DNA from: Thermostichus lividus PCC 6715
GTDB taxonomy: Bacteria > Cyanobacteriota > Cyanobacteriia > Thermosynechococcales > Thermosynechococcaceae
Length of the DNA stretch: 64,000 bases
Direction: 5' to 3'
NCBI RefSeq assembly: GCF_002754935.1
Contig: NZ_CP018092.1
Coordinates: 2,294,001-2,358,000 of the forward strand
The notes beneath the pieces were generated by a model. It was given only the letters and a program-made list of their open reading frames with translations. It was not told the DNA's origin and did not search any database. Position numbers and translations under genes: made by a program. Positions 7,036-47,362 of the stretch are shown here, in pieces. Within the stretch, counting starts at the first letter, position 1. Each line of letters opens with the position of its first letter.

Positions 7036-7471
7036 TAGTGATGTGGGCGGGCTAAAACCCCTCCGCTTTAGCGAGGGGATACAGCCAACTCAGGGGGCTT
7101 TAGCCCTCTCTATGTGTTAAACTAGAGACGTGGAAAGTAGGCGTATCAACTACGCGAAGAAACATCCTAGTACGGAGAAATCCCGGCAAGTAAGTCACTA
7201 CCGCTTTGGCGGCAAGCCTAAACCACTGCAAGCAATGGCAGGATGTTGAGCGTATCGAATTGGCTAGTGTTGAAAAGCGCGAAACCACGAACCAAAACAT
7301 AAACGTAGTCCCAATAGCAGAAATGCTTGAGGTGAGTAGGGGGTCTTTGACTGCCCCCACCCGCATTAAGTTGTGGGTGACAGCTCAAGGGAAAAGCGAA
7401 GCAACGCGGCTTCAGCCCGTTGCGCAGCATCCGTTGGGAATCCCCTCTCTTTCAAGGAGGGGAGAAGTCAA
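7036..7471 (+). mobile_element. Non-autonomous IS200/IS605-like element with omega-RNA-like 3' half, copy 1
   Basis: 436 bp, nearly identical to 41120-41555 and 61269-61703. All copies follow TTATAG and end in GAAGTCAA. The left end has a hairpin (CCCCTCCGC...GCGAGGGG, 7058-7078), and the right end a hairpin with nearly the same stem (CCCCTC...GGAGGGG, 7442-7462), typical subterminal palindromes of IS200/IS605 transposons. There are no flanking target duplications. The 3' half can fold into three more stems (7339-7358, 7358-7379, 7401-7423) just before the end, as in the omega RNA of TnpB elements. It encodes no transposase; a conserved ~40-codon reading frame lies at ~7130-7246 but has no known relative. 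Confidence 0.72.
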
Positions 7472-7479
7472 AGGTTCGC

Positions 7480-8766
7480 CTAGGAGGCTTCCCTCGTCGG
7501 GTGAATGGTGGCAATCAACGAACCACCGATGGCGATCGCCACCGCTAGCGCCACAAGCACAGGAACTAGCCCCCACCAAGTTTCGGCAATCCCCGCGAGG
7601 GCAAGGGGCAGGCTGAGGGCAATATTGACAAGGTTATTTTGTAACCCAAAGATGGTGCCCCGCTGCTCCGGCGGTGTCATGACCTGAACAGTGGTTTGCA
7701 TGGGAATAGCCACCAACGCCGCAAAAAAACCAAACCCCACAATAAAGGTTCCGCTTAGCCATAATGACTGTAGGGAAAAGGCAAGCCCCAACAGCATTCC
7801 CCCCATTCCCCAGCACCCGAGCAAACTCCACAGACGATAGGAGAGCCACCTTGTCCCGATATTCAGCAGTAATGCGCCCAGCCCTAACCCCACTGCGGCC
7901 GCAGCGAGCAAAAAGCCAAATTGATCGGTGTCAAGGGCAGGCATGACCTCTGCCAAACGAACAACAAGTACCGACATTGCTGCAACAACTGAAAACAGTA
8001 GGATCAACTGCATCAGCGCGAAGCGCAGCGCCGTATATTGCCCCAACAGGTGTAGCCCTTGGCGCAGCTCTTGCCAAACTTGGCGGTAGCGACTGGGGGG
8101 CAGGTGGCAGTGATCCGGAGGGCGCAACAGAAACAAAAAGGCAGCAGCACTGCCATAGCAAAGACTGACAAAGATTGCACCGCCCCATTGCGGCTGCCAG
8201 TGACTAGCCAAGGTCAGGAGCGGTTCGCCCGCTGCAAATCCCAGCACCAAAGCCGCCATCATCGTGAGGGTATAAAGAGAGTTCGCAGAAATTAAGTGAG
8301 ACTTATCGACCAATAGGGGAATGGCTGCCTGTTCCGCAGGCGCAAAGAATTGGGTCAAGCTGGAGATGGCAAAGGTGAGCAGCAGCAGTACCATAAAACC
8401 GCTAAGGCGACCCGTTGCCATGAGCGTTGTGGAGGGGACAGCCAAGACTAGAAGAGCGCGGTAGAGATTTGTAACAATGAGCACTTGTTTTTTGGACCAG
8501 CGATCCACAAATACCCCTGCCACCGAACCGAGCAAAATGGCCGGAATGGTAAAGGCCACCATAATGGCAGATACCCAACCACTAATACTCTGGTCGGGAG
8601 GTTGAAAGAACTGAGTGGTGAGGGCAATCACAAGCACAAGGTAAATTTTGTCCGCCAGCTGAGAGCATACTTGAGCAAGCCACAGGGCAATGAAATTGCG
8701 ATTTTGCCAGAGGGGGGGTACTGGCGCTGGAGGTGAAATCACGCGAATGTCGGGCTCAACGGTCAT
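7480..8766 (-). CDS. MFS transporter
   Basis: 428 residues with twelve predicted membrane spans. The start region (LWQNRNFIALWLAQVCSQLAD) and the loop 2-3 motif GVFVDRWSKKQVLI mark it as a major facilitator of the drug-efflux/enterobactin-exporter-like type. PEQRGTIFGLQNN in the C-terminal half fits the loop 8-9 region. The substrate is unknown. Its ATG overlaps the stop of recO by four bases (ATGA), so the two are probably translated together, and its stop lies nine bases from the end of the repeat element. Confidence 0.8.
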   Translation of the reverse strand: MTVEPDIRVISPPAPVPPLWQNRNFIALWLAQVCSQLADKIYLVLVIALTTQFFQPPDQSISGWVSAIMVAFTIPAILLGSVAGVFVDRWSKKQVLIVTNLYRALLVLAVPSTTLMATGRLSGFMVLLLLTFAISSLTQFFAPAEQAAIPLLVDKSHLISANSLYTLTMMAALVLGFAAGEPLLTLASHWQPQWGGAIFVSLCYGSAAAFLFLLRPPDHCHLPPSRYRQVWQELRQGLHLLGQYTALRFALMQLILLFSVVAAMSVLVVRLAEVMPALDTDQFGFLLAAAAVGLGLGALLLNIGTRWLSYRLWSLLGCWGMGGMLLGLAFSLQSLWLSGTFIVGFGFFAALVAIPMQTTVQVMTPPEQRGTIFGLQNNLVNIALSLPLALAGIAETWWGLVPVLVALAVAIAIGGSLIATIHPTREAS

Positions 8767-9563
8767 GGCTGTGGCACCATCAGGGGTGAAAAACAGGTAT
8801 CAAGGAGGGGGGGCACCCGCAGAACTTTATCAAAATAAAACTGCATATACTGCCGCAACACCCGCTCTAAGGACAGCCAAACACTTAGAGGATAGACCTG
8901 AGACGCCTCTAGAAAATTCTTGAGGTCGCACTCTTGGGTGGCTGGGGTTGCAAGCCACTGCCCCAGACGCACTTCGCTGGCGGTAAGCTGGCGATCGCCC
9001 CGACCGGTTGTTAGCAGCCCCCCCGCCGCAAAGCTAAAGCCCAGTCGCCAATCAGTGTCTGCCGCAGGCACATGAATAGCTCCGCCGCCGTCACCACACT
9101 GGTGCCATTGGGGGGCAATACCGCTAAGGTCAAGAAGACGGCAGAGACTTCGCAACAACACAGCAAGAGCTGCCCGACTGGATAGCTGCTGCAATTGCTC
9201 TAGGGTGGTGCACAGTAAATCAAAGAGTTCCGGCTGCGGCTGAGGATGATCCGCTTGGTACAGCACCACTTCCCCAAGGTACTGAGCCGCTGTAATCCTC
9301 GCCAGTTGAGTGGTCAGCCCATGATAGGTCATCACGGTTTCCGCTTGCAGGATGCGATCTAAGCTGCGACCATTGGCAATAAATAACTGATTGACCACAA
9401 ACAGATCAACCCGTCCCCCTAACCTAGAGCGGGATCCACGGCAGTGGGGAGCTACCAATTTCAAAAGGCCGCGATCGCGCGTAAGGACACTCAAGAGGCG
9501 ATCGTTTTCCCCCAAGGGCATGGCTTTAAGATTGATTCCAACAGTGGTGTAGGTGCGGCTCAT
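8763..9563 (-). CDS. recO: DNA repair protein RecO
   Basis: 266 residues, normal length. N-terminal OB fold (YTTVGINLKAMPLGENDRLL, then LTRDRGLLKLVAPHCRGSRS) followed by the helical domain with ITAAQYLGEVVLYQ. RecO acts with RecR to load RecA onto SSB-coated gapped DNA and can anneal strands. The four-Cys zinc site of some RecO proteins is not present. It starts 55 bp after the Argonaute stop on the same strand and overlaps the MFS gene by four bases, so Argonaute, recO and the transporter probably share a transcript. Confidence 0.9.
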   Translation of the reverse strand: MSRTYTTVGINLKAMPLGENDRLLSVLTRDRGLLKLVAPHCRGSRSRLGGRVDLFVVNQLFIANGRSLDRILQAETVMTYHGLTTQLARITAAQYLGEVVLYQADHPQPQPELFDLLCTTLEQLQQLSSRAALAVLLRSLCRLLDLSGIAPQWHQCGDGGGAIHVPAADTDWRLGFSFAAGGLLTTGRGDRQLTASEVRLGQWLATPATQECDLKNFLEASQVYPLSVWLSLERVLRQYMQFYFDKVLRVPPLLDTCFSPLMVPQP

Positions 9564-9617
9564 GGCCAGAAAAACAACAGGATCATTGTCTTCCTTTAGC
9601 CTATCGCGGCACGTTGC

Positions 9618-11783
9618 CTATACAGCGATCAACTTATCCCGATCAAGCCCCTCAAGAATGCTTAAGGGTTCAATACGCGAAAACTCTTGGCTGCTTTTGT
9701 GGGCAAAGTGCAGCACCCACGGTAAGCGGGCATGGCCATAGCCACTGGCTGGATGCAACTGTGCCAAGTGATAGGTTTGCAACGCCAGTAACTCAAGCGG
9801 CGTACTGCCATAGGCATGCACAATCCGTAAAGGACGGGTACTGCCTAGCTCGTGTGTACCTTTCTTAATGGGTTGACTGGTTATCAGCAAAAACGATCGC
9901 TCTGTGTCATCGTAAACGACAGTGCCCTTCGGGGCAGACTGATAGGTTCCATTGCTGGGGCATGCCATGCGACCGGCACCACTTTTGCGAACACTCAGCA
10001 GATCAACGTCAATGGACTCCCGTTTTAACTCTTGGATAGTGCGCTCAAACTCGTCAGGGCGCGTCAGTCCATCCCGCATCAACAAGACCTTACGTGGATA
10101 GCGGCGATAGATAGTGTCGAACTTGCCCATGAGCTTCCGGATCGTTTGCCAGACCGCTTCACCGCTGAGTTTTTCGCCCCGCTGCACCATCGGCAGTTCC
10201 CAGCCTAACGACTGCCCATTGGCAAGCACAGCAAAGGCAGGGGTGCCAAAATAAAGAAAGCGATTGGTGCCGGTATCAAACCCCACAATAAGTTCTGCTT
10301 TTCCCACATCATCAAGGGGCTGCAAGCGTACTGGCTGCCATTTAGCTTTACACAGCAAGCCAAGAACCACGTTCAAGCCCTTGTAGTCATTCTGCTGATT
10401 GGGGACAACAAACTGGGTGGCAATATTGGCTCGGAGAGCTTCATTGCGAATGCGCTGCTTTTGATCAGAATAGGGCATCACTACCAAGACAGTACGCACA
10501 CCTTCGTCAGCCCATGCCTGCCAAAAGCGTTGACGTGCCAGATCAGTCTTACCTAAGTCTGCTGATGTGCGGTAGGAGGACAGGTCTAGCTCGATACCAT
10601 GGTGGCGAGCAATCTGCTGTAGGCACTTGCGAATCTCCTCAGGATAGGCTCCCTCATTAGTGATGAGGTTCAGCAGACCAAACTTGGTCTCTCCGATCTG
10701 GGCGCAACCGTGCTTGCGGACATCGGCTACCTTTTTCACCTGCCGGTTATCCTTAGCAAGTAGAATCGCTGGGGGCAGTTGGTGCCCTTCCTTAGTCACG
10801 GGGGCAATGGAGTCGGCGCTGCCACTGTAGAGATTGATGCACAGCCACTCAGCAAATTTGGTGGATTTTTGGAAGCGCTCACTACTACTCAGCCGAATGT
10901 TCGTAAAGATTTTCTCCACCTCTTTGGCGTAGTTTCGCTGACGACCCAGTTCAGCCAGCATTTCCAAGGTGACGCTGGGTCTCAGCCGCTGCGAGAGATG
11001 GGCAATTGGCTGCCCCCCCTGAGCACGTTTGACGTACACTACTTGCGACGTACTAAGCTCTTGCTCTGTTGCCCCTTCGTTGCGATGGTACTCCGCAAGG
11101 CTGATGTTGAGTCCGGGTAGGTTCACTGCTTCGGGTTGCTCGTGAGTGATACTGTGTAGTTGCCAGCGCAGAAACTGGTTGTTCTTGAGGTACGTATTGC
11201 GCACCCATTTGATTAAAGGCTCATGCTCAGGATAGGTGTTGAGCCACTCCTGCAATGTCAAAGGTGTCCAGAAATGGTGGAAACGGTCAATTTCCAGATA
11301 AAGTTTTGCTGTGGCATCGAGCCTGACATCGAGGCAAAAGCCTTGGTGAACTGTCCACCCTTGCGCTGGACTCTCCGAGGGTTTCCGCTCCCAGATGCGG
11401 ATACTGTTGTTGCTTGCTCGGTCAACGTCCTCTCTATCTCGCTGCTTAAAGTAACGGTATAATTCTTGGCGGCATAGGCTCTCCAAGGCTTCGCGATCCT
11501 CAAGACAAGTGCAGTCAAAGACCCGAGGCGGCTGGGGAATCAGTTGCCACGCCTTCGTCTTAAGTTGTTCGAGGGGCTGGCGAGTCACAATGGCACTCCC
11601 CCAGCGAGCGGCAGGAACCGGTAACTGGTAGCACACCTTATTGAGGGCATAGGCTTCTGTTCCTAGTTCAGGATTCTGCTGCCACCGGCACGTGAATGGA
11701 TAAAGGAGTCGTGCCTCTTCCTCAAGGGTCTTAACACAAAACTGGTTGAGGATCACTGGGTAGGAGTTGCCAGAAGATGTCAT
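9618..11783 (-). CDS. Long prokaryotic Argonaute with complete DEDH catalytic set
   Basis: 721 residues. The C-terminal PIWI domain carries D503 (VGFDTGTNRF), E537 (QRGEKLSGE), D571 (LLMRDGLTR) and H695 (RLPWVLHFAHKSS), a full DEDX set with His in fourth place as in eukaryotic slicers. The MID domain (~430-485) shows Y438, K442, Q457 and K479, suitable for binding a guide 5' phosphate. N and PAZ domains (~1-290) are longer and less conserved but of normal length for a long-A Argonaute. It is predicted to cut nucleic acid guided by short oligonucleotides. Known cyanobacterial relatives use small DNA guides against DNA; that the same holds here is inferred. It lies directly upstream of recO. 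Confidence 0.9.
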   Translation of the reverse strand: MTSSGNSYPVILNQFCVKTLEEEARLLYPFTCRWQQNPELGTEAYALNKVCYQLPVPAARWGSAIVTRQPLEQLKTKAWQLIPQPPRVFDCTCLEDREALESLCRQELYRYFKQRDREDVDRASNNSIRIWERKPSESPAQGWTVHQGFCLDVRLDATAKLYLEIDRFHHFWTPLTLQEWLNTYPEHEPLIKWVRNTYLKNNQFLRWQLHSITHEQPEAVNLPGLNISLAEYHRNEGATEQELSTSQVVYVKRAQGGQPIAHLSQRLRPSVTLEMLAELGRQRNYAKEVEKIFTNIRLSSSERFQKSTKFAEWLCINLYSGSADSIAPVTKEGHQLPPAILLAKDNRQVKKVADVRKHGCAQIGETKFGLLNLITNEGAYPEEIRKCLQQIARHHGIELDLSSYRTSADLGKTDLARQRFWQAWADEGVRTVLVVMPYSDQKQRIRNEALRANIATQFVVPNQQNDYKGLNVVLGLLCKAKWQPVRLQPLDDVGKAELIVGFDTGTNRFLYFGTPAFAVLANGQSLGWELPMVQRGEKLSGEAVWQTIRKLMGKFDTIYRRYPRKVLLMRDGLTRPDEFERTIQELKRESIDVDLLSVRKSGAGRMACPSNGTYQSAPKGTVVYDDTERSFLLITSQPIKKGTHELGSTRPLRIVHAYGSTPLELLALQTYHLAQLHPASGYGHARLPWVLHFAHKSSQEFSRIEPLSILEGLDRDKLIAV

Positions 11784-11863
11784 GCTGTAGCTCGAGAATG
11801 TAATGCGCTAGGGGCGATCGCCCTATTTTACTCTGTCAAGGCTGGTTCAAAATTCCTAGAGGG

Positions 11864-12910
11864 CTAAGGGTGCAGTGCCACCTTAATCACTTGTCGTGCT
11901 TTCATCGCTTGCAGCACCTGCTCAATCTCGGTAAGGGGTGCGTGGCCACTTACAAGCATTTCAAAGGGTAAGGTTTGGCTGGCAATGAGGGCAAGGGCTT
12001 GACGAACAAAGGCGGGCGTATTGTGAAACACTCCCTTGAGGGTGAGTTCTTCGTAGTGCAGGCGCTCAGTATCGACACTGATGCGGGTTTCCCGCGGACA
12101 GCCGCCAAAGAGATTAATCGTTGCCCCCGGACGACCGCAGGCGATCGCCACTTCCCACACCTGCGGTACGCCTGTGGCTTCAATCACAATGTCAGCACCC
12201 CGTCCTGTCGTCCAATCTTTGACCACTGCTGGCATATCTTCGCACTGATGATGGTTCACCACCTGCTCTGCACCGAAGGTCTCGGCGATCGCCAACCGTT
12301 GATCCGAGCCGCCAAAGGTGAGTACCCGTGCCCCCTGCTGAGCCAACACCCCCACAAACATTAAACCAATGGCACCATCACCAATCACCACAATCTGGGG
12401 TGGACTCGGCCACTGCTGCATCTGGGGCTGCCACCCGCAACGTGCCACGCCGTGCAGGACACAGGCCAGCGGCTCCGTCAGGGCAGCCATCTCCTCGCTC
12501 AGGTGCTCAGGAATTGGCAGGAGGTTATGGCGGACAATACTAGCAGGAATCTTCAGATACTCAGCAAACGTGCCATTGTTAAACTCAAGGTGCGCACACA
12601 GCGAAAACTCCTGCCGCTGGCAATAGAAGCACTGGCCACAGGGCGCAGAGTTATTTGCTACCACGCGATCGCCCAGCCGCCAACCCGTCACCCCAGCACC
12701 GAGGGCAACAATTTCCCCTGCGGCCTCATGGCCAAAGAGAATGGGCGGGGTTAACATCCGGGCATGGCCGCCCCGCCGCCACACTTTCAAGTCGGTGCCA
12801 CAGGTGGTTGCCGCTTTCACACGGATCACCACTTCGCCAGCCGCTGGCGTTGGATCCGCCACGCTTTCAATGCGCACATCTTCTTTGCCGTAGAGCACTG
12901 CCGCTTTCAT
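11864..12910 (-). CDS. Zinc-dependent medium-chain dehydrogenase
   Basis: 348 residues. Catalytic zinc site: Cys37 (TTCGTD), His-Glu in GHEAAGEIVALG and a Glu further on. Structural zinc lobe: CGQCFYCQRQEFSLC. Rossmann motif: VVIGDGAIGLM. The family includes sorbitol, threonine and other polyol/alcohol dehydrogenases; the substrate cannot be fixed from sequence. The 80 bp to the Argonaute gene contain a HIP1-like site and no obvious terminator, so cotranscription with the Argonaute is possible. Its promoter region abuts the left end of the dead IS200/IS605 element. Confidence 0.82.
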   Translation of the reverse strand: MKAAVLYGKEDVRIESVADPTPAAGEVVIRVKAATTCGTDLKVWRRGGHARMLTPPILFGHEAAGEIVALGAGVTGWRLGDRVVANNSAPCGQCFYCQRQEFSLCAHLEFNNGTFAEYLKIPASIVRHNLLPIPEHLSEEMAALTEPLACVLHGVARCGWQPQMQQWPSPPQIVVIGDGAIGLMFVGVLAQQGARVLTFGGSDQRLAIAETFGAEQVVNHHQCEDMPAVVKDWTTGRGADIVIEATGVPQVWEVAIACGRPGATINLFGGCPRETRISVDTERLHYEELTLKGVFHNTPAFVRQALALIASQTLPFEMLVSGHAPLTEIEQVLQAMKARQVIKVALHP

Positions 12911-12949: not shown

Positions 12950-13682
12950 TTGCGGGAAGACCCCATACGCAGCGTAGCGGAGTATGGGGATGAGAGCAAA
13001 GCCAAAAATCTGCGGCATTTAACTATTTGACCTGAGTTGGGTAAGTATTGTATAACATGCACTATGGGAAATAAAGCTTACAAATTTCGACTGTATCCAA
13101 ACAAAGAGCAATCCGCATTTTTAGCAAAATGCTTTGGTTGCTCCAGATTTGTATATAACCATTTTTTAAGGTTGACCATAGATGCATACGCCAAGTCTAA
13201 AAAATCTCTACGCTACAAAGACTGGGCAAAACGTTTAACAGGCTTAAAATCAGAGTTTGAATGGCTTAAAGAAGTTAATTCCCAAGCATTGCAGCAGACT
13301 CTTAAGGATTTAGAGTCGGCATTTGTGATGTATCGTGGGGCAGCTTCCTCGCCATGTTGGAATACAAAGGGTATATCTACGGTTGCGAAATTTGCTACGT
13401 AGATAGATTCTTCCCCAGTTCTAAGAGATGTTCCAATTGCGGGTACATCAAGCAAGATTTAACGCTTGCTAGTCGTGAATGGGAGTGCCCAGAATGCAAA
13501 ACTGTTTGGGACAGAGACATTAATGCTGCCTTGAATTTGCTGCTGTTCTCTGAATCAAAAATACCCTTGGAAGAAGGGAAATCTACGCCTGATCAGCTAG
13601 TTGCAAGACTAGGGATGAACCGGGATACTGGTTCAGGACAGGAAGCCGCAGGTGTAGCGTAGCGAAACCTGCGGTACTTCAC
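12950..13682 (+). mobile_element. Decayed IS200/IS605-family element (tnpB only)
   Basis: Left-end hairpin CCCCATAC...GTATGGGG (12961-12989); right-end hairpin CCGCAGGT...ACCTGCGG (13646-13674) followed by TACTTCAC. Between them is only an internally deleted tnpB, and no tnpA is seen. The outer limits are estimated from the hairpins. With both ends kept it could still move if a matching TnpA were supplied, but nothing in the window would do so. Confidence 0.7.
13064..13662 (+). pseudogene. tnpB: tnpB with large internal deletion
   Basis: Residues from the ATG at 13064 (MGNKAYKFRLYPNKEQ) match the TnpB N-terminus to about residue 90 (LQQTLKDLESAF). The sequence then jumps to the C-terminus in another frame: MLEYKG...VDRFFPSSKRCSNCG with the zinc finger CSNCG...CPECK and the RuvC-III motif WDRDINAALN. 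About 200 residues, including the RuvC-I Asp and RuvC-II Glu, are missing, so it cannot be a working nuclease. The zinc-finger part is intact to the stop at 13662, and the tail runs into the right-end hairpin, as in functional elements where the omega RNA overlaps the tnpB end. Confidence 0.85.
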
Positions 13683-47026: not shown

Positions 47027-47362
47027 AGAAGCAGGCAAAAGCCCCACTGCCATAAGGAAGCCGCCCGAACGAATAACTGTCCAGGCGGGGTGTGGTGTGA
47101 GGAGTGAACGGAAACGTGCGTCTCCGCTATTTCTATTGTAGGGGACAGTTTCAGAATTGCCATAGGCAAATTGACGCAAAATCCGCAAATCTTTAGGCTA
47201 ATTTAACTTGGTGTCGCGGAACTCCTACCGATGCGGTGGGCTAGTTCATGGCGATGGCAATGAACTTGCCATCGCCCTTAGGGCAGCAGAGAGTCAATAT
47301 ACAGGTACAAGGCCGAGCCTTCTGGGGATTAAGCTAAATAGAGAGGTTCAAACGAACAAGCG
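47027..47362. other. Intergenic region with a strong inverted repeat
   Basis: About 335 bp with no convincing gene. It contains the inverted repeat GGCGATGGCA...TGCCATCGCC (~47251-47275), which could act as a terminator-like or mRNA hairpin. Nothing else stands out. Confidence 0.4.

What the first reader, a model, noticed from the sequence alone, without database searches (positions are those of the whole stretch)
8763..11783. DEDH Argonaute directly upstream of recO in one apparent operon
A full-length Argonaute with an intact catalytic set (D503, E537, D571, H695) and a MID pocket lies 55 bp upstream of recO, which overlaps an MFS gene by four bases. RecO loads RecA on gapped DNA and anneals strands; an Argonaute that makes or binds short DNA guides could cooperate with it in replication-termini or gap repair. 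His in the fourth catalytic place is less usual in bacteria than Asp. The Argonaute and the catalytic residues are seen; the link to RecO is inferred from gene order.
Basis: partly seen in the sequence, partly recalled or inferred. Interest (0 to 1): 0.75.

Follow-up and report, generated by a model that had tools for sequence, protein, structure and literature searches.

The report
Argonaute gene inherited beside recO
A hot-spring cyanobacterium carries an apparently intact DNA-cutting Argonaute gene next to a DNA-repair gene; the pairing looks old, but most relatives have lost it, so the two are probably neighbours rather than partners.

Summary
A 721-aa long-A Argonaute (9618-11783, minus; nearest solved structure TtAgo) carries D503, E537, D571, H695 and ends 54 bp before recO, with no listed terminator between. 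The proposed RecO partnership is weakly supported: of 29 cyanobacterial genomes with this Argonaute family, 2 have it beside recO (this genome and sister G010), 25 do not, 2 cannot be judged.

New here: (1) His in the fourth place marks one clade, seen in four genomes of the genus; the 31 other readable relatives have Asp. (2) The pairing is probably ancestral: six recO loci without Argonaute keep what looks like its last codons, in two of them as the tail of a nucleotidyltransferase gene that seems to have displaced it. (3) All 11 sampled genomes of the genus hold an Argonaute, from at least three acquisitions. (4) This genome's second Argonaute (DEDD) lies between integron attC-like sites and is 98.1% identical over 2,377 bp, crossover to crossover, to one in a distant cyanobacterium: an Argonaute gene cassette.

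Best reading: a guide-dependent DNA-cutting defence nuclease, parked at recO since the genus ancestor; co-transcription is possible, partnership unproven.

The parts
9618..11783 (-). Argonaute (long-A pAgo, TtAgo/SeAgo-like family), 721 aa, tetrad D503 E537 D571 H695
9699..9701 (-). codon of the fourth catalytic residue, H695 (CAC); Asp in the 31 other readable relatives
10173..10175 (-). codon of E537 (second catalytic position; in a loop of low model confidence)
10275..10277 (-). codon of D503
10071..10073 (-). codon of D571
9564..9617 (-). 54-bp gap between Argonaute and recO; its GCCGCGATAGGCTAAA core is shared with the recO leaders of 7 of 9 other recO-bearing genus genomes (G010 and the six with the relic; G004 with one change)
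8763..9563 (-). recO, 266 aa
   Evidence: TIGR00613, 69.5 bits, cut-off 48.7
7480..8766 (-). MFS transporter, 428 aa, 4-bp overlap with recO; it follows recO in the 10 genus genomes where recO was found (split into two frames in G002)
11662..11822 (-). 161-bp block (22 bp of leader plus the first 45 codons of Argonaute) with a 97% identical copy beside purL at about G000:C1:499584-499744; marks a rearrangement breakpoint at the Argonaute 5' end
11864..12910 (-). zinc-type alcohol/threonine dehydrogenase-like gene now upstream of Argonaute, same strand; G010 has purL (divergent) there instead

Best explanation
The gene encodes a catalytically competent long-A Argonaute that most likely uses short 5'-phosphorylated DNA guides to cut matching DNA, mainly limiting incoming plasmid, phage or transforming DNA, as reported for its relative SeAgo. 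It came to lie upstream of recO in the ancestor of the genus. In one branch (this genome and G010) it stayed; in the other branch a nucleotidyltransferase module displaced it, leaving its last codons before recO. It is probably co-transcribed with recO and the MFS gene, but the neighbourhood is inherited position, not a RecO-Argonaute machine. Shown here: protein family, tetrad, MID pocket, gene order, relic, clade. Inferred: guide type, cleavage, defence role, co-transcription.
For: Family and fold: (Foldseek ranks 1-33 are all TtAgo entries). Tetrad and pocket. Ancestral position: the 21 nt before the recO leader match the Argonaute 3' end at 14-19 of 21 positions in six genomes; of 1,510 other TAG-ending 21-mers in the window none reaches 16 against the G000 tail or 15 against the G010 tail. 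Four nucleotidyltransferase relatives outside the genus end at this point without the tail, whereas 29 of 38 Argonaute rows end in KLIAV or KLIGV. recO without Argonaute in 8 of 11 genus genomes. Purifying selection: dN 0.25 against dS 2.1 (saturated) between G000 and G010. SeAgo restricts RSF1010 plasmids and natural transformation (PMC10653904; passages and one section seen).
Against: No activity, guide or expression data exist for this protein here. The adjacency has outlived strong divergence (Argonaute 66%, RecO 83.5% identical between G000 and G010), which a useful link could also explain. SeAgo and LrAgo effects in E. coli depend on RecA and RecBCD (PMC10269773, passages), and pAgo operons are enriched in DNA-processing genes (PMC6299218, passages), so a repair link is not absurd.
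Confidence: 0.65

Rival explanations
1. Argonaute and RecO form a functional pair: Argonaute makes or binds short DNA at gaps or replication termini and RecO anneals or loads RecA there.
For: Tight co-directional order kept in two species that have diverged strongly and probably ancestral in the genus; relatives act with RecA and RecBCD in E. coli (PMC10269773, passages).
Against: Adjacent in 2 of 29 Argonaute-bearing genomes, not in 25, undecidable in 2. DEDH Argonautes of G006 and G009 are elsewhere. recO persists without it in 8 genus genomes.
Confidence: 0.1
2. Mainly a chromosome-maintenance factor (completion of replication or decatenation, as proposed for TtAgo), independent of the recO position; the genus needs one such protein at all times.
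For: 11 of 11 sampled genus genomes hold an Argonaute against 18 of 377 others in the class sample, from at least three separate lineages (tree). TtAgo role cited in the abstract of PMC10269773.
Against: Patchy, mobile distribution and an integron-borne copy fit defence better. Relatedness of the 11 genomes makes the count less than 11 independent events.
Confidence: 0.17
3. The Asp-to-His change reduced or altered cutting, so this is a binding or differently acting Argonaute rather than a slicer.
For: The change sits on a long stem branch (0.62 changes per column); this genome also keeps a DEDD copy.
Against: DEDX with X = D, H or K counts as catalytic (PMC6299218, PMC10653904; passages). D, E, D and H are all kept in the three full-length DEDH rows and in the half-length G006 row. 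G010 has no other Argonaute hit.
Confidence: 0.08
4. History reversed: the nucleotidyltransferase was the old neighbour of recO and Argonaute replaced it in the G000/G010 ancestor through chance similarity of the two gene ends.
For: The nucleotidyltransferase side is the commoner state in the genus; similarity of the DNA just before the shared tail is visible.
Against: The tail is family-wide in Argonaute and absent from four outside nucleotidyltransferases; no remnant of the nucleotidyltransferase pair in the eight G000, G010, G006 and G009 stretches searched at E 1.
Confidence: 0.1

Closest known systems
TtAgo (Thermus thermophilus Argonaute)
   Same: Same fold and domain order; best sequence match in the PDB, E 7.7e-67; best structural matches, TM-score by query length up to 0.74; MID pocket aligned.
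   Different: 28-29% identity in the structural alignment; TtAgo has Asp where this protein has H695 (alignment; the TtAgo catalytic residue is recalled).
SeAgo (Synechococcus elongatus) and the DEDD cyanobacterial long-A pAgos
   Same: About 50% identity with the DEDD cyanobacterial relatives found here, same KRQK pocket; active cyanobacterial pAgos, Thermosynechococcus named among the holders, form one cluster with TtAgo in PMC10653904 (section read).
   Different: DEDH instead of DEDD, separate clade with a long stem, beside recO. SeAgo itself was not identified by name among my sequences.
Second Argonaute of the same genome (G000:C1:2020414-2022594)
   Same: Same family, PADLOC PDLC02387.
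   Different: 50% identical, DEDD, lies in an attC-like array; nearly identical to the G044 copy.
Defence genes in integron cassettes (Vibrio studies as reviewed in PMC12409362; passages seen)
   Same: For the second Argonaute: a defence gene carried as a cassette between attC-like sites.
   Different: A roughly 2.4-kb Argonaute cassette in cyanobacteria; that review says cassette-borne defence systems are streamlined in size. The window Argonaute is not in such an array.

Membership tests
Long-A, catalytically active prokaryotic Argonaute | N, PAZ, MID and PIWI regions in one chain | tested here: met
   PAZ_3 hit, full-length PADLOC match, full-length structural match to TtAgo, mean pLDDT 85.9. 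Pfam Ago_Mid was below cut-off and no PIWI model was listed.
Long-A, catalytically active prokaryotic Argonaute | DEDX tetrad with X = D, H or K | tested here: met
   DEDH at 503, 537, 571, 695; definition from passages of PMC6299218 and PMC10653904. Geometry was not measured; E537 is in a loop with pLDDT under 50.
Long-A, catalytically active prokaryotic Argonaute | Guide-dependent target cleavage | not testable with these tools
   needs purified protein
RecO | Passes the curated RecO model | tested here: met
   TIGR00613 69.5 bits against cut-off 48.7; RecO_N and RecO_C above cut-off
Argonaute-RecO functional operon | Gene order conserved wherever the Argonaute family occurs | tested here: not met
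   2 of 29 adjacent, 25 not, 2 undecidable
Argonaute-RecO functional operon | Co-transcription | not testable with these tools
   54-bp gap, no listed terminator; no RNA data
Integron gene cassette (window Argonaute) | attC site next to the gene | tested here: not met
   no model R1 match in the window, L034, L035, L036 or L047 at E 0.1
Integron gene cassette (second Argonaute of the genome) | attC-like sites on both sides in the cassette orientation, block boundary at the GTTA crossover | tested here: met
   98.1% identity between crossovers, 38.3% in the kilobase before the preceding site, 20.8-27.4% after
Integron gene cassette (second Argonaute of the genome) | attC folds as a strong single-stranded hairpin | tested here: inconclusive
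   bottom strands of three sites: z -1.39, -3.21, -0.78 against shuffles
Integron gene cassette (second Argonaute of the genome) | Integron integrase in the same genome | tested here: not met
   TIGR02249: no match in G000; full-length over the cut-off only in G231, which holds a related Argonaute beside an attC-like site; partial or broken in G010, G044, G088. G000 would be an array without integrase.

The most novel reading that the evidence does not exclude
Thermosynechococcus-type cyanobacteria have a standing need for an Argonaute and renew it by swapping: a founding DEDH lineage coupled to recO, a DEDD lineage beside the carboxysome operon, and DEDD copies delivered as integron cassettes shared with Gloeomargarita-type cyanobacteria. 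The recO slot was where the founding copy was tied to RecFOR repair, and the tie survives in the G000/G010 branch.
Probability: 0.2. Interest if true: 0.8.

Novelty: new member of a known kind. Interest (0 to 1): 0.55.

Why it matters
The window protein is a thermophile's Argonaute with the DEDH tetrad inside an otherwise DEDD family, so one active-site change can be studied against close DEDD relatives, one of them in the same cell. The genus also gives a natural series: the same recO locus with Argonaute, with a nucleotidyltransferase module grown onto Argonaute's last codons, and with neither, which makes a RecO link directly testable. The integron-borne copy suggests a concrete vehicle by which Argonaute genes cross between distant cyanobacteria.

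Tried and rejected
RecO partnership as main reading: rejected as the best supported because the adjacency is found in 2 of 29 genomes. Argonaute as a recent arrival at recO: rejected in favour of an ancestral position because of the tail relic. Window Argonaute as an integron cassette: no attC-like site. A simple inversion as cause of the 161-bp duplication: both copies lie on the same strand of the chromosome, which one inversion would not give; not pursued. A promoter for recO in the gap: nothing listed by the consensus scan, not decided. First scan of genome contigs with the single protein found no relative; the second scan, with alignment A1, gave 25 loci and named three of the genus MAGs.

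Results against my reading: the G007 relic matches at only 14-15 of 21, and one and two control 21-mers reach 15 and at least 14 against the G000 tail. G003 and G005 keep no relic. A complete nucleotidyltransferase was matched in only 2 genus genomes, G001 and G004. Two of three attC-like sites do not fold better than most shuffles, and G000 has no integrase match. TIGR02249 also rings below its cut-off in all 14 control genomes, so its weak matches mean little. The attC-like model was built from 15 sites in six genomes and matches those by construction; G010 (9 matches), G032 (2), G004 (1) and G006 (1) were not in it; only 150 of about 750-1,570 first-look candidates per genome were scored.

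Rows left out: the 29-30% hits L019 and L020, the fragments L003 and L022, and L073 and L074 (records of the G008 copies) were not in the tree; 16 rows identical to others were merged, leaving 38. The tree is a quick one with SH-aLRT only; a careful tree was made for purL alone.
Full report
What is there. The minus strand of 7480-11783 holds Argonaute, recO and an MFS gene in that order. Argonaute is a full-length member of the TtAgo-like long-A group: PADLOC PDLC02387 E 2.3e-274, TtAgo the best PDB sequence at E 7.7e-67. The AlphaFold2 model (mean pLDDT 85.9, pTM 0.84, 14-sequence alignment) finds TtAgo entries in ranks 1-33 of Foldseek against the PDB, TM-score by query length 0.62-0.74. The tetrad D503, E537, D571, H695 is confirmed by alignment, as is the MID pocket K442, R446, Q457, K479 (roles of the TtAgo counterparts recalled). 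E537 lies in a loop of low model confidence (534-537). RecO passes its curated model.

The DEDH clade. Of 38 distinct relatives, 4 have DEDH (the window, G010, G006, G009), 31 have DEDD and 3 are unreadable at the fourth position. The four DEDH rows form one clade with SH-aLRT 100 on a stem of 0.62 changes per column (quick tree). All four come from the window's own genus. G006 and G009 are identical in this gene to records titled uncultured Thermosynechococcus sp. S1_Bin_METABAT__322_1 and Thermosynechococcus sp. M46_R2017_013; G006 is a half-length gene at a contig end. Between G000 and G010 the Argonautes are 65.6% identical, RecO 83.5%, the MFS protein 86.2%, PurL 92.1%; Nei-Gojobori dN/dS is 0.25/2.06 for Argonaute (dS saturated) and 0.10/0.86 for recO. 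Argonaute evolves fast but under purifying selection.

Gene order in relatives. In the class sample 29 of 388 genomes carry the family at E 1e-30 or better: all 11 of the genus and 18 of the 377 others. recO was located in 10 of 11 genus genomes and 17 of the 18 others. Argonaute is directly upstream of recO in G000 and G010 only. In 8 genus genomes recO and Argonaute are far apart or on different contigs. In G006 no recO was found and Argonaute is followed by a convergent leuB-like gene; G009 has its DEDH Argonaute beside a gene of the same cluster. Outside the genus 16 are not adjacent; G359's contig stops 63 bp after the Argonaute stop, and G289's Argonaute is cut by the contig end with no recO found, so these two cannot be judged. 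In six genus genomes (G001-G005, G007) the Argonaute is a DEDD copy beside a carboxysome-type cluster (Pfam BMC, EutN_CcmL and RuBisCO_small tested on the G007 copies).

The relic. recO followed by MFS and the SpoIIE-type gene is kept across the genus loci. In G001, G002, G004, G007, G008 and G009 the DNA just before the shared recO leader reads like the end of Argonaute, for example coding NKLITV-stop where the window has DKLIAV-stop. The 21 nt match the window or G010 Argonaute end at 14-19 positions. Among 1,510 other TAG-ending 21-mers in the window the best reach 15 (one) and 14 (one) against the window tail, and 14 (one) against the G010 tail. In G001 and G004 this tail is the C-terminus of an intact nucleotidyltransferase (Pfam Polbeta; in G001 read together with an NTase_sub_bind partner), which also scores with PADLOC candidate system PDC-S09. 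In G002, G008 and G009 I read decayed remnants of that gene in the printed DNA, and in G007 a deletion between its partner and the tail; this was read by eye. Four relatives of the nucleotidyltransferase outside the genus end at that point without the tail, whereas 29 of 38 Argonaute rows end in KLIAV or KLIGV. The simplest history is Argonaute upstream of recO in the genus ancestor, kept by the G000/G010 branch and displaced by the nucleotidyltransferase pair in the other. The purL tree separates G000 plus G010 from the other nine (bootstrap 100) with G006 and G009 as sisters of the rest (midpoint root). The reverse history is kept as a rival.

Local rearrangement. In G010 Argonaute is preceded by a 69-codon ORF and a divergent purL. 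In the window it is preceded by a dehydrogenase gene. A 161-bp block with the Argonaute start (window 11662-11822) has a 97% identical copy beside purL at about G000:C1:499584-499744, and there the G010-like upstream DNA continues. So in this genome a rearrangement cut Argonaute from its former leader; its present promoter is probably new or read through from upstream (inferred).

The second Argonaute. G000:C1:2020414-2022594 (DEDD, 50% identical) is bounded by repeats with attC-like ends. From the GTTA crossover of the preceding repeat to that of its own, it is 98.1% identical over 2,377 columns to the copy in G044. The preceding repeats are 77.5% alike, the kilobase before them 38.3%, and the DNA after the second crossover 20.8-27.4%. 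G044 shares its family and genus codes with G088, whose Argonaute is identical to that of a record titled Gloeomargaritales cyanobacterium VI4D9. A covariance model of 15 such sites matches 7 places in G000, 10 in G044, 24 in G088, 6 in G231, 9 in G010, 2 in G032 and 1 each in G001, G004, G006 and G008, and none in 6 of the 16 genomes searched (six of the genomes gave training sites). A full integron integrase over the curated cut-off exists in G231 (467.7 bits; cut-off 265), whose Argonaute contig also bears an integrase fragment; G010, G044 and G088 have partial or broken matches, G000 none. Single-strand folding of three sites is inconclusive. I conclude that this Argonaute travels as an integron cassette; excision itself is inferred.

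How it most likely works. With an intact DEDX tetrad and a 5'-phosphate pocket like TtAgo, guide-dependent DNA cutting is the likeliest activity (inferred). SeAgo lowers natural transformation and blocks RSF1010 plasmids (PMC10653904; abstract, passages and section 5 seen), so defence against incoming DNA is the likeliest role. SeAgo and LrAgo also help E. coli under gyrase inhibition in a RecA- and RecBCD-dependent way (PMC10269773; passages), which keeps a maintenance role open. PMC6299218 (passages) reports no conserved operon structure for any pAgo group but a strong association with DNA-processing genes.

Novelty. Active pAgos in Thermosynechococcus and the DEDX rule are already in print. 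I found no paper in this library on an Argonaute beside recO (4 papers listed, none holding RecO; 2 listed, none holding RecO or Thermosynechococcus) or on an Argonaute integron cassette (8 papers, listings seen; 5, listings seen; 24, 10 listings seen; passages of one, PMC12409362). The library lacks most subscription journals. The window protein is a new member of a known kind. The displaced-tail history, the DEDH clade and the cassette-borne sister are the parts worth following.

Noticed in passing
G000:C1:2018899-2022915 (L033 8900-12916): A second Argonaute (DEDD) sits in an array of attC-like sites and is 98.1% identical, crossover to crossover over 2,377 bp, to a copy in distant cyanobacterium G044: an Argonaute integron cassette.
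   Followed up: yes
G000:C1:531882-532837: recA of this genome reads in two overlapping frames, with a frame change at a run of G; the 10 other genus genomes each give one open match. It may be a sequencing error.
   Followed up: partly
L038 10347-12592 and L039 4210-6455 (G008, contig C10): Two copies of a DEDD Argonaute, 99.8% identical over 2,246 bp and about 14 kb apart; one is followed by an attC-like site, the other by a truncated one.
   Followed up: partly
L111 383-613 (G009, contig C179 end): A second, 5'-truncated copy of the G009 DEDH Argonaute start runs off a contig end.
   Followed up: no
window 13037-13662: IS200/IS605-type OrfB (TnpB) pieces in two frames (HTH_OrfB_IS605 and Cas12f1-like_TNB), beside the dehydrogenase gene now upstream of Argonaute.
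   Followed up: no
window about 7206-7480: DNA after the MFS gene resembles a stretch downstream of ubiD in the same genome (end of L136), read by eye from printed sequence; it may be a mobile-element remnant.
   Followed up: no
window 47058-47127: Yfr1 small RNA of cyanobacteria, minus strand (Rfam RF01116, 49.8 bits).
   Followed up: no
L037, L041, L042, L044, L045, L046: In six genus genomes a DEDD Argonaute lies directly upstream of a carboxysome-type cluster; one of them (G001) also has an attC-like site nearby (L044 15425-15514).
   Followed up: partly
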